Origin: Desulfobacterales bacterium
Lineage (GTDB): Bacteria > Desulfobacterota > Desulfobacteria > Desulfobacterales > B30-G6
Length of the DNA: 35,323 bases
Reading direction: 5' to 3'
NCBI GenBank assembly: GCA_029940035.1
Contig: JAOZRT010000012.1
Location: 1-35,323, forward strand
Shown: positions 13,830-25,539 of the stretch, one piece after another
Layout: the number at the start of each line of letters is the position of its first letter
How positions within the stretch are numbered: the first letter of the stretch is position 1
Notes under the pieces: generated by a model
Databases searched by the model: none
The model's input: only the letters and a program-made list of their open reading frames with translations
What the model was told of the DNA's origin: nothing
Program-made: the position numbers and the translations under genes

Positions 13830-13868
13830 AAATTTGTACCAAATTTTTATGAGACGCGGCTTCGCCGC
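13826..13868 (+). repeat. Palindrome at the thiolase stop codon plus tag hairpin
   Basis: A perfect 11-bp inverted repeat ATAAAAATTTG / CAAATTTTTAT with a 3-nt TAC loop spans 13826-13850; its left arm contains the thiolase stop TAA. It is followed at once by GAGACGCGGCTTCGCCGC, whose last 13 bases form the hairpin GCGGC-TTC-GCCGC (13856-13868). Nearly the same tag follows a larger palindrome at the end of rfbB (34705-34764). The structure could add a termination step ahead of the stronger terminator at 13884. Confidence 0.75.
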
Positions 13869-14641: not shown

Positions 14642-14658
14642 ATGCGGCGCAGCCGCAT
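14642..14658. other. Triloop hairpin ATGCGGC-GCA-GCCGCAT
   Basis: Seven-base perfect arms with a GCA loop on the plus strand. It resembles the triloop mini-hairpins of the 24.3-kb array and the hairpin at 13856-13868. Confidence 0.6.
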
Positions 14659-22486: not shown

Positions 22487-22635
22487 TGCTGATTGGCCGG
22501 CATTGCAATATTCCCTGAATTGTGATTATAGTTTGCAAATCCTTTGTAGTTGTAGATTCTTAAAATGCTTATCAAATTTCATACAAAATCCGGATAATTG
22601 TCCATTCAATCCAAATATTGCGGAGGAAACCTGAT

Positions 22636-24228
22636 ATGACCAGCCCGCCTCAGAGTACCGGCAAGAAACCCCATGGGAAAAAACGTATCGGAGACGCTTT
22701 TGTTGACAACGGGCTTATCAGCAAAGAACAGCTGCAAAAAGCATTGCAAAAACAAACCCAAAATGGCGGTCATCTGGGATCTATCCTGATTGAAATGAGA
22801 TTCATCACCATTGACAACCTGCTTGATTTTCTGTCCAGGCAGAGCGGATTCCCAGCCGTCAATCTGTATAAGACAAATATCAGCAAAGACCTGCTTGAAC
22901 TGATCCCCACGGAAAAACTTCACAGTTTTCAGGTCCTGCCTATTGCTACTGACGATAACACGCTGACAATGGCCATGATCAATCCCCATGACTTTGAAAC
23001 CGTGAGTGAAATCGGGTTTCTGCTGGGGAAAAAAATAAACCCCGTCATCGTGCCCTCTTTCATGATGGAAGCCGTCAGAAAAGTTCTTCTGGCTGATCCG
23101 GCCGGAGGCCTCAGCGGAAAACTGATCAAAAAAATGGTGGATGCCTCCCAGCAGAAAATCGGTAAAATTACGCCTCTGATAGCCCTGCTCCAATATCTGT
23201 CAAAATCCAAGGCCAATGATCTGCTGCTGACAGCCGGTGCACCGCCGGCCTTGAAAATCAGCAATGAAGTGAAGCGCCTGACCATGCCTCCCCTGACCCC
23301 GGCTGACTGTGAACAATACGCACGGGACCTGTTGTCCGAAGAGGAGTGGGCTGTATTCGAAGAAAAAAATGACTGCGGTATCGCCGTTACCTATCCAAAT
23401 CTGGGCCGTTTCAGGGCCAATGTTTTCAGGCAACGGAACTCGGCTGCCATTGCCTTGCGGAACCTTCCCGAATCCATCCCCTCCCTGAACGATCTCAATC
23501 TTCCCGAGTGGTTGAGGGAATTCGCTCTCAGGCCCCAGGGTCTTATTCTCATCGGGGGACCGGCGGGCCATGGCAAATCCACCACCATGTGTGCCCTGGT
23601 GGACATTATCAACAACAACCGGCGCTGCAACATCCTGACCCTGGAGGATCCGGTCGAGTATCTGCACAAACATAAAATGAGCAACATCAATCAACGCGAA
23701 GTGGGCAGGGATACCGAGTCCTTCAATGAGGGGCTGCGCCATGTGTTCAGACAGGCGCCGGATGTCATCGTCATCGGTGAAATGAGGGACACGGAGAGTA
23801 TGGCCATCGCCATGCGGGCGGCCAGCACCGGCCACCTGGTTTTGAGCACCATTCACGCCAACAATTCGACGTCCATCATAGAGACCATCATCAACAGCTT
23901 CGAGCCCCACCGTCAGAACCTCATCAGAATGATGCTCGCGGACTGTCTGCTGCTTTGCCTGTCCCAACGCTTGCTGCCTCTCAAGGATGGCCAGGGGCGC
24001 GTCCTTGCGCTGGAAAAGCTTATCAACAGCCATCGCATCCGGAATCGTATCCGGGAAGAAAAAACCCACCACATCCGTTCCCAGATGCAGGCCGGCTCTG
24101 AAGACTATGGCTCTCTGGATGTTGCCCTTGCCAACCTCTATAAAAAAGGCTCCGTCAAATTGGAAGACGCGGCCAAATTTGCCGATGACGATCTGTTTTT
24201 CAGGGAAGTTGCCACGGGGAAGAAGTAA
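22636..24228 (+). CDS. PilT-like secretion/twitching ATPase with N-terminal MshEN domain
   Basis: AAA-type hexameric ATPase related to type IV pilus motors, acting at the inner membrane. Residues 17-69 contain two repeats of the MshEN pattern: RIGDAFVDNGLI followed by SKEQLQKALQKQ, and HLGSILIEMRFI followed by TIDNLLDFLSRQ. The first repeat fits the c-di-GMP-binding consensus fully; the second has His for Arg and Arg for Gly. The ATPase half shows Walker A GPAGHGKST (about 308), Asp box EDPVEYL, Walker B VIVIGEMRD and His box TGHLVLSTIH. The C-terminal part (LLPLKDGQGRVLALEKLI, then SLDVALANLYKKGSV) follows PilT/PilU rather than PilB, and there is no Cys4 zinc motif. ATG 22636 follows GGAGGAAA. 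No pilin or pilus assembly gene is adjacent. Confidence 0.85.
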   Translation: MTSPPQSTGKKPHGKKRIGDAFVDNGLISKEQLQKALQKQTQNGGHLGSILIEMRFITIDNLLDFLSRQSGFPAVNLYKTNISKDLLELIPTEKLHSFQVLPIATDDNTLTMAMINPHDFETVSEIGFLLGKKINPVIVPSFMMEAVRKVLLADPAGGLSGKLIKKMVDASQQKIGKITPLIALLQYLSKSKANDLLLTAGAPPALKISNEVKRLTMPPLTPADCEQYARDLLSEEEWAVFEEKNDCGIAVTYPNLGRFRANVFRQRNSAAIALRNLPESIPSLNDLNLPEWLREFALRPQGLILIGGPAGHGKSTTMCALVDIINNNRRCNILTLEDPVEYLHKHKMSNINQREVGRDTESFNEGLRHVFRQAPDVIVIGEMRDTESMAIAMRAASTGHLVLSTIHANNSTSIIETIINSFEPHRQNLIRMMLADCLLLCLSQRLLPLKDGQGRVLALEKLINSHRIRNRIREEKTHHIRSQMQAGSEDYGSLDVALANLYKKGSVKLEDAAKFADDDLFFREVATGKK

Positions 24229-24546
24229 GGGATCACGGATTTTATACAAGTATGGTAACTACGCTGCGCTGTAATTTGTTGTAATTTGCCTGCGGCGTAG
24301 TTCATGCTACGCATGTCATTACGCCTTCGGCTGTCATCAGTGCTTCGCATGTAATTTGCCCTTCGGGCGTAATTTATTGTCGATATCGGCTTTAAGCTGT
24401 CGACAACAATAAATATCAGCGAAGCGTAATAACGCGCGCAGCGCTAATTGAATCTGTGCAATCCGCGTAATCTGTGCCAAATATTTTATTAGCCCTAAGT
24501 TCTCCCTTCTGACACTCCGACCCCAAATTCCGCATTCCGCATTCCA
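24229..24546. repeat. Noncoding region with an array of triloop mini-hairpins
   Basis: This 318-bp gap holds no credible gene. Short palindromes with 3-nt loops follow one another between AT-rich spacers: GC-TGC-GC (24263-24269), GCC-TGC-GGC (24288-24296), CATGC-TAC-GCATG (24303-24315), GCC-TTC-GGC (24323-24331), TGC-TTC-GCA (24341-24349) and GCCC-TTC-GGGC (24358-24368). After a central palindrome (24372-24383 with 24400-24414, TTTATTGT/ACAATAAA with a 3-base bulge), hairpins with the complementary loops appear: GC-GAA-GC (24419-24425) and GCGC-GCA-GCGC (24434-24444). Read in the opposite sense the left loops are GCA, GTA and GAA, the GNA class. The right end carries AATCTGTGC twice (24451, 24469) and ATTCCGC in tandem (24527-24540). 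Confidence 0.75.
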
Positions 24547-25539
24547 TCACCCCCCGATCCCCGACATCTGATCCGTCACCTTGAAGGCAGGGTCACCACT
24601 GAAGTGGTGCGCATCCTGTTTGTATCCGACAGCTTTCTTAAAGATATCGGCGACGTCATCGTCACTGCAACCGGCACGCATAGGCCCCTTGATGTCCACC
24701 ATGCGGTCGGACAGCAGGCAGGGCCTGATATGGCCGTCAGCCGTCAGCCGCAGGCGGTTGCACGCAGCACAAAAATGGCGACTCATGGGGCAGATGAAGC
24801 CGATCTCGCCGGGAGCGCCTTCAAACCGGAACCGCTCGGCAGGACCGTCCATCTGGTTTTTCTCGACAGGCATCAGTTTCCCCAGGGCCTCGATCTGCTT
24901 TCTGATTTCAGGCGCCAGAATGGAATCGCCGGCATGCATCCTTGAATTGCCGATGGGCATGTATTCTATAAACCGGATGTGGAAAGGATATTCCAACGAC
25001 AACCTGGCCATTTTCACAAGTTCCTGGTCATTGTGCCCTTTCAGTGCCACCACATTGATTTTTATGGGGCTGAGGCCGGATGCATGTGCTTTCATAATAC
25101 CGCGCCACACCTTATCGAACACATCGTACCCGGTGATGTACGCAAACTTGTCCCTGTCCAGGGTGTCGAGGCTCACATTGATCCGCTGGATACCCGTATC
25201 CTTGATCATGTCCACGTTCTTTTCCAGAAGATAGCCGTTGGTGGTAAGAGAAATATCCGTCAGGCCGTCGACTTCCCCCAGTTTTTTCAGAAAAGAGCCT
25301 ATGCCTTTGCGCACCAGGGGTTCCCCACCGGTCACCCGCACCTTGCGGATACCGGCTGCAACCCCGATTTTGACAACCTTTAAAATTTCCTCATACCGCA
25401 TGATGTCATCGTGGGGCACCTTGGGAACGATCCCTTTGGGAACGCAGTATATGCAGCGCAGGTTGCACCTGTCGGTGACGGAAATACGCAGATATTCCAG
25501 ATGCCGGTTGAAATTGTCGGTCAGCGCCGTTTTCTCCAT
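24547..25539 (-). CDS. moaA: GTP 3',8-cyclase (molybdenum cofactor biosynthesis protein A)
   Basis: Radical SAM enzyme that with MoaC converts GTP to cyclic pyranopterin monophosphate, the first step to the Mo/W pterin cofactor. The SAM cluster motif is CNLRCIYC (about residue 25-32). The second [4Fe-4S] cluster that binds GTP uses CPMSRHFCAACNRLRLTADG and HIRPCL; the three cysteines expected are present. The C-terminus ends in GIGG, the GG tail needed by MoaA family members. Length 330 aa is standard. Its ATG follows directly after the stop of the GpgS-like gene, so it is the last gene of the operon. The AOR at 14.7-16.4 kb is one likely user of the cofactor. Confidence 0.96.
   Translation of the reverse strand: MEKTALTDNFNRHLEYLRISVTDRCNLRCIYCVPKGIVPKVPHDDIMRYEEILKVVKIGVAAGIRKVRVTGGEPLVRKGIGSFLKKLGEVDGLTDISLTTNGYLLEKNVDMIKDTGIQRINVSLDTLDRDKFAYITGYDVFDKVWRGIMKAHASGLSPIKINVVALKGHNDQELVKMARLSLEYPFHIRFIEYMPIGNSRMHAGDSILAPEIRKQIEALGKLMPVEKNQMDGPAERFRFEGAPGEIGFICPMSRHFCAACNRLRLTADGHIRPCLLSDRMVDIKGPMRAGCSDDDVADIFKKAVGYKQDAHHFSGDPAFKVTDQMSGIGG

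What the first reader, a model, noticed from the sequence alone, without database searches (positions are those of the whole stretch)
24263..24444. Array of GNA-type triloop mini-hairpins around a central palindrome
Eight tiny palindromes with 3-nt loops are strung together with AT-rich spacers (variants of GTAATTTG and GTCAT). Left of the centre the loops are TGC, TGC, TAC, TTC, TTC, TTC (GNA on the other strand); right of it GAA and GCA. GNA triloops such as d(GCGAAGC) are known to be exceptionally stable in single-stranded DNA. Loop chemistry is conserved while stems vary, which suggests selection or a spreading mechanism on single-stranded DNA. Related single hairpins occur at 13856 and 14642.
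Basis: partly seen in the sequence, partly recalled or inferred. Interest (0 to 1): 0.58.

Follow-up and report, generated by a model that had tools for sequence, protein, structure and literature searches.

The report
Dispersed arrays of tiny DNA hairpins
The window holds one copy of a repeated, non-coding element built from many tiny hairpins, found in dozens of gaps between genes of this bacterium (even between two RNA polymerase genes) and in some unrelated bacteria; the hairpins are kept intact while the element comes and goes, much like known bacterial palindromic repeats but with different parts.

Summary
Window 24254-24446 is one copy of a dispersed, non-coding element. It is made of ~18-nt modules, each a 3-5 bp stem closed as C(TNC)G, which reads C(GNA)G on the other strand, plus a GTMATTW spacer. 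Modules point towards a palindromic core: all 23 two-directional arrays examined in this genome and all 9 in a congener have TNC left and GNA right. The own genome gave 37 matches. Stems vary but pair; loop positions 1 and 3 are nearly fixed and the middle base is free. The arrays lie downstream of genes (17 codirectional, 6 convergent, 0 divergent of 23), including inside imuB-dnaE2 and rpoB-rpoC. Occupancy differs between related species: rpoB-rpoC is 22 nt and array-free in G003, while the array is present in G000 and, apparently inverted, in G001. The same modules occur in some Bacteroidales. No Y1/RAYT transposase gene found was flanked by arrays, and no Rfam family, plasmid, phage or viral contig matched. 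I read it as a REPIN/BIME-like palindromic mosaic without GTAG tag or known transposase. That the folded hairpin is what is conserved is well supported. ssDNA mobility is inferred; RNA-level function and replication-driven upkeep remain open.

The parts
24254..24446 (.). whole mini-hairpin array element (head-to-head modules around a core)
24256..24371 (+). left half: modules with C(TNC)G triloops on + and GTMATTW-type spacers (loops TGC, TGC, TAC, TTC, TTC, TTC)
24303..24315 (+). mini-hairpin CATGC-TAC-GCATG, 5-bp stem
24323..24331 (+). mini-hairpin GCC-TTC-GGC
24341..24349 (+). mini-hairpin TGC-TTC-GCA
24358..24368 (+). mini-hairpin GCCC-TTC-GGGC
24372..24414 (.). palindromic core; arms ATTTATTGT/ACAATAAAT and TTGTCGA/TCGACAA
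   Evidence: I11, I12
24417..24446 (-). right half: modules with C(GNA)G triloops on + (GAA at 24419-24425, GCA at 24434-24444)
24231..24253 (+). degenerate left outer shell (related to GACACGGATTTCACGGATT)
24446..24479 (-). degenerate right outer shell (AATCTGTGCAATCCGCGTAATCTGTG)
22618..24228 (+). flanking gene: T2SSE/MshEN ATPase, ends 26 nt before the array
24547..25539 (-). flanking gene: MoaA-type radical SAM (Mob_synth_C), convergent

Best explanation
The array is one copy of a dispersed, non-autonomous palindromic mosaic element of the REPIN/BIME kind. Two runs of ~18-nt GNA-mini-hairpin modules face each other across a palindromic core, so either strand folds into TNC hairpins 5' and GNA hairpins 3'. 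SHOWN: dispersal, fixed polarity, paired stems with variable sequence, near-fixed loop positions 1 and 3, position downstream of genes, and occupancy that differs between congeners. INFERRED: the folded hairpin is the recognised unit; the element is copied and lost as folded single-stranded DNA, exposed for instance on the lagging strand; a hairpin-reading enzyme supplied in trans (unidentified) acts on the 5' TTAC/TGAC plus C(GNA)G stem-loop; tandem duplication and exchange between copies reshuffle modules. The element is tolerated where it does not break a promoter. An effect on transcripts would be secondary.
For: 37 matches in the own genome, listed as 28 places on 26 contigs. Related arrays in 2 same-genus and 1 same-family genomes but in at most 1 of the other 287 genomes drawn from the order. 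Unit covariation in G000 (60 units), G001 (42) and Bacteroidales (62). Spacer-anchored units, chosen without looking at the hairpin, still give stem >=3 in 55 of 99 against 9.4 shuffled, with 51 of 55 loops TNC. Polarity TNC-left/GNA-right in 23 of 23 and 9 of 9 two-directional arrays. 0 divergent of 23 gaps, against 17-27% divergent in control gaps, P 0.015-0.0007. Occupancy differences at MoaA-T2SSE, imuB-dnaE2 and rpoB-rpoC. Between-species hairpins: 40 stem pairs same, 2 double changes, 1 wobble, 0 broken, and stem mismatch 7 of 120 against spacer 109 of 582.
Against: No mobilising enzyme found: none of 37 Y1_Tnp loci (7 in the own genome, 30 in eight others) has an array unit in the DNA fetched, up to ~1.5 kb each side. 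Target-site duplications were not tested systematically, and the gaps seen hold other fillers rather than clean insertions. No RNA-seq or DNA probing. Units are related by descent, so the shuffle tests overstate independence. For C419 in G001, three non-orthologous G000 arrays score above its syntenic partner (302, 231 and 220 against 218), so only the rpoB-rpoC pair is safely the same array.
Confidence: 0.55

Rival explanations
1. Replication-driven filler. Slippage and intrastrand template switching keep making and repairing short hairpins, so stems stay perfect with no selection and no transposase.
For: Tandem 36-nt duplications in a G001 array. Template switching can create and repair stems (PMC8794818, abstract and outline read). 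Other quasi-periodic inverted fillers occupy the same gaps in congeners.
Against: Repair of arms does not fix unpaired loop bases, yet loop positions 1 and 3 are nearly invariant. Whole ~215-nt copies are shared between distant loci. The same GTMATTW spacers occur in Bacteroidales.
Confidence: 0.22
2. RNA-level element. Arrays are 3' regions or intercistronic spacers whose hairpins set mRNA stability or differential expression within operons.
For: 0 divergent of 23 gaps. Arrays lie in rpoB-rpoC and imuB-dnaE2. RNA folds are stable: z -4.4 for the window array and -7.9 for rpoB-rpoC.
Against: Gaps of congeners lack the array at the same operons. DNA folding is also unusually stable, z -3.6 on both strands. 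Absence from divergent gaps also follows from selection against hitting promoters.
Confidence: 0.2
3. Ordinary intrinsic terminators or chance palindromes.
For: Convergent placement in the window and GC-rich stems.
Against: GNA/TNC triloops exceed all 2000 shuffles; modules lack T-runs; arrays sit between rpoB and rpoC.
Confidence: 0.03

Closest known systems
REPINs / BIMEs (REP doublets or mosaics; PMC3116915, PMC3733652)
   Same: Dispersed, intergenic, palindromic, no ORF; units in inverted orientation with fixed polarity; clusters; a folded single strand is the presumed active form.
   Different: Module is ~18 nt with a 3-5 bp stem whose sequence varies freely; several modules per half around a separate palindromic core; no GTAG tag; no flanked RAYT found.
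Group 3 TnpAREP substrate REP-Sm (PMC8266576, passages read)
   Same: Short perfect palindrome with a 3-nt loop whose first base (G) is essential, and a 5' tetranucleotide; resembles TTAC/TGAC + stem + GNA here.
   Different: 8-bp stem and GTAG tag; no such enzyme is linked to these arrays.
CGTC-tagged REPs (PMC3733652, passages read)
   Same: Reported in Proteobacteria and Bacteroidetes; no dedicated transposase; C/TGTC occurs at the foot of about half the modules.
   Different: CGTC REPs have 8-9 bp stems and 4-5 nt loops; modules here have 3-5 bp and 3 nt.
MITEs with terminal inverted repeats
   Same: Some copies are enclosed by an inverted GACACGGATTTCACGGATT shell.
   Different: The shell also occurs without arrays and many arrays lack it; no target duplication shown.

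Membership tests
REP (GTAG class) | GTAG/GTGG tetranucleotide 5' of the hairpin | tested here: not met
   5' of the GNA hairpins stands TTAC/TGAC; units were collected by GTAATT/GTCATT spacers
REP (GTAG class) | basal stem 7-20 nt paired, loop 2-5 nt (as used in PMC6006769 methods, passage read) | tested here: not met
   stems 3-5 bp, triloop
REP / REPtron | cognate RAYT gene flanked by the repeat | tested here: not met
   0 of 37 fetched Y1_Tnp loci contain an array unit; 40 matches in all, 37 with loci
REPIN/BIME | units in inverted orientation, intergenic, multi-copy | tested here: met
   23 of 23 and 9 of 9 two-directional arrays with one polarity; 37 matches
CGTC REP | 8-9 bp stem, 4-5 nt loop, CCA tail | tested here: not met
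   stems and loops do not fit; tail not examined; definition from passages of PMC3733652
CGTC REP | CGTC/TGTC at one end | tested here: inconclusive
   C-spacer units read GTC after the hairpin's last stem base (23 of 60 in G000), the rest GTA
MITE | terminal inverted repeats | tested here: inconclusive
   shell found beside 7 arrays and nowhere else in 228 kb at <=3 mismatches, but it also occurs without arrays
MITE | target-site duplication | not tested
   gaps inspected by eye only
Intrinsic terminator | GC hairpin followed by a T-run, ending transcription | tested here: not met
   no T-run after modules; arrays lie inside rpoB-rpoC. The terminator scan tool was not run
Known Rfam RNA family | score above gathering threshold | tested here: not met
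   0 matches over the window

The most novel reading that the evidence does not exclude
A new class of mobile repeat whose selfish unit is defined by DNA fold rather than sequence: C(GNA)G mini-hairpins on AT-rich spacers, read as single-stranded DNA by a still unknown enzyme. It spreads and flips within genomes and passes between phyla (Deltaproteobacteria and Bacteroidales), nesting inside other palindromic fillers and even inside rpoB-rpoC.
Probability: 0.25. Interest if true: 0.78.

Novelty: new variant of a known kind. Interest (0 to 1): 0.55.

Why it matters
The arrays are a natural experiment in which stem sequence is free while pairing and a GNA loop are held. That makes 'is a DNA or RNA fold the unit of selection in bacterial intergenic repeats?' directly testable. 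Their presence in rpoB-rpoC, with array-free congeners, offers a clean test of cost or effect. If a mobiliser exists, it would be a hairpin-reading enzyme not linked to its repeats in the way RAYTs are.

Tried and rejected
Chance: rejected by the GNA/TNC count, though the any-triloop count alone is weak (51 of 2000).

RAYT/IS200 as flanking mobiliser: no array unit in any of 37 fetched Y1_Tnp loci. Subclasses not flanked by their repeats remain possible.

Phage or plasmid origin: no viral contig with the two-unit pattern and no plasmid or phage match.

Stem replacement at rpoB-rpoC: I first read the G000 and G001 arrays as having wholly different stems in the same places. Aligned in reverse they match end to end (score 223 against 149 forward; next best array 154), so an inversion, or two insertions in opposite directions, explains it better. 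The G001 contig starts at the array edge, so misassembly is not excluded.

Two of 16 stretches from the genome-contig scan (L097, L106) and the one distant order hit (L067) look like chance matches, judged by eye to lie in coding sequence. Eight hairpins not fully aligned or with an indel were dropped from the 12-hairpin count, and the C450/C120 pair was left out for poor alignment. One array place of the 28 (C433, a single unit) was left out of the gap count, and 4 of the 27 places used lacked one classified neighbour.

Literature: nine searches ran; none listed a paper that I recognised as describing these arrays. That is not proof of absence.

Full report
WHAT IS THERE. The gap 24229-24546 lies between convergent genes: a T2SSE/MshEN ATPase ending at 24228 and a MoaA-type radical SAM protein ending at 24547. 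Nothing in the window reaches an Rfam threshold. Inside the gap, 24254-24446 is built of modules of about 18 nt. Each module is a short perfect stem closed as C(TNC)G followed by a GTAATTT- or GTCATTT-like spacer. Left of a palindromic core (24372-24414) the modules run forward; right of it they run reversed, so their loops read GNA on the + strand. Triloops of any sequence are only mildly enriched (8 against 3.4; 51 of 2000 shuffles reach it), but GNA/TNC triloops are strongly so (6 against 0.46; 0 of 2000). The heptamers GCGAAGC/GCGCAGC, either strand, occur 44 times in 2950 nt of 13 arrays and 21 times in 109,903 nt of ten control contigs.

A DISPERSED FAMILY. The array matches 37 places in its own genome (5.17 Mb, 581 contigs), two of them at 93% over about 215 bp. 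I read them as 28 array places on 26 contigs, the window's included. Copies share stretches of different length and some have internal deletions, so they are mosaic. A two-module pattern hits 31 times in the own genome, 21 and 3 times in the two same-genus genomes, 4 times in the one same-family genome, and in 1 of the other 287 genomes drawn from the order. The Bacteroidota copies keep the same spacer. In the order of one of them, 7 of 295 genomes have a hit, against 2 genomes hit by the reversed control pattern, so the family is patchy. No viral contig, plasmid or phage record matched.

ANATOMY AND CONSTRAINT. Units were taken by spacer and CTNCG, so the outer three pairs were free. They are Watson-Crick in 58, 59 and 48 of 60 units in G000 against shuffled means of 26, 21 and 32, with like results in G001 (41, 40, 34 of 42) and Bacteroidales (57, 58, 49 of 62). 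Units anchored on two spacers alone still have stems of 3 or more in 55 of 99 (shuffled 9.4), and 51 of those 55 loops are TNC. All two-directional arrays have the same polarity, TNC left and GNA right: 23 of 26 in G000 and 9 of 11 in G001, the remaining 3 and 2 being one-directional, none reversed or mixed. DNA and RNA folds of the window array are more stable than shuffles (z -3.6 and -3.7 on the two DNA strands, -4.4 for RNA); the rpoB-rpoC copy gives z -7.9 as RNA. Minimum-energy folds mix local mini-hairpins with pairing between the two halves, so the mini-hairpins are not the only predicted structure.

WHERE THE ARRAYS SIT. Of 27 array places examined, 23 have both neighbours classified by a longest-ORF rule: 17 codirectional, 6 convergent, 0 divergent. 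Divergent gaps make up 17-27% of control gaps in the same genome, depending on the size cut (some control contigs carry arrays), giving P from 0.015 to 0.0007. Many arrays start within a few bases of a stop codon. One lies between rpoB and rpoC and others in an imuB-dnaE2 type operon, which argues against a terminator role.

COMINGS AND GOINGS. In G001 the MoaA-T2SSE gap has the same genes (82 and 87% aa identity) but no array; its 332 nt hold a different inverted, quasi-periodic filler. In the imuB-dnaE2 cluster three gaps carry arrays in G000. G002 lacks them in two and has a one-sided run in the third; G001 lacks them in two and has a one-sided array in the other. The rpoB-rpoC gap is 22 nt in G003, 177 nt with another inverted filler in G002, and 286 nt with the array in G000. 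In G001 an array stands next to rpoC and aligns to the G000 array over 173 nt, but in reverse (score 223 against 149 forward; next best array 154). In-place inversion is the simplest reading; two opposite insertions or an assembly fault are not excluded.

BETWEEN-SPECIES TEST. In four syntenic array pairs, 12 hairpins align fully and 8 were dropped. Stem pairs: 40 unchanged, 2 changed on both sides with pairing kept, 1 wobble, 0 broken. Loop position 1 differs in 0 of 12, the middle in 6 of 12, position 3 in 1 of 12. Stem bases differ in 7 of 120 aligned positions, spacers in 109 of 582 (Fisher P 0.0002; loop middle against ends P 0.003). Two cautions apply. Arrays exchange material, and G001 C419 scores higher against three non-syntenic G000 arrays (302, 231, 220) than against its syntenic one (218). 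For the one safe pair, rpoB-rpoC, the numbers are small: 4 hairpins, 13 pairs same, 1 double, 1 wobble, loop middle changed in 3 of 4 and ends in 0 of 8.

HOW IT MOST LIKELY WORKS. The freedom of stem sequence, the fixed C(GNA)G signature and the fixed polarity say that a fold is what is kept. REPINs are inverted pairs of short palindromes thought to move as folded single strands (PMC3116915, passages). One REP transposase reads a perfect stem with a 3-nt loop through its first base, a G, plus a 5' tetranucleotide (PMC8266576, passages). The modules here, TTAC/TGAC + stem + GNA, would suit an enzyme of that kind. This is analogy, not membership: the tag differs, stems are shorter, and none of 37 fetched Y1_Tnp loci has an array beside it. 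Template switching during replication (PMC8794818, abstract) can make and mend stems and may well feed the array, but does not by itself hold the loop ends fixed. An RNA role fits the 3' placement but not the loss at the same operons in congeners.

VERDICT. A real repeat family, not labelled in the libraries searched here, closest to REPIN/BIME mosaics, with unusual modules. Constraint on the fold is well supported. Mobility is supported by distribution but the mechanism is inferred.

Noticed in passing
window 24231-24253 and 24446-24479; G000 C535:24112-24183 (L212); G002 C70:32791-32953 (L208): A second repeat, GACACGGATT-N-CACGGATT with its inverse, encloses several arrays like a shell; it also stands alone and, in G002, in 48-bp tandem copies. 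Arrays appear nested inside it.
   Followed up: partly
L149 2494-2825 (G001, ortholog of the window gap); L278 about 1325-1500 (G002 rpoB-rpoC): Different quasi-periodic inverted fillers (ACTTTAGATCAC- and TACGTTTTAAG-like) occupy the gaps where G000 has hairpin arrays.
   Followed up: partly
L138 9258-9314 (G000 C94): A 57-bp hairpin-bearing repeat (ATAGCGAGCGCATTC...GCAGCTTGCTGC...GTAAGCGAGCG) matches more than 25 places in G002.
   Followed up: no
window 24504-24546; L138 6592-6640; L015 1370-1480: Degenerate ~10-nt periodic runs such as TTCCGCATTCCGCATTCC and GAACATCGAACGTCCACCATCC in intergenic DNA, in several gaps and genomes.
   Followed up: no
window 13856-13868 and 14642-14658: Single GC-rich triloop hairpins (5- and 7-bp stems) without the array spacers; a GCGGCTTCGCCGC hairpin also recurs beside a gap in L141 and L110.
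   Followed up: no
L111 2920-3085 (G001 C416): Recent tandem duplication of a two-module 36-nt block inside an array, a sign of slippage-type growth.
   Followed up: no
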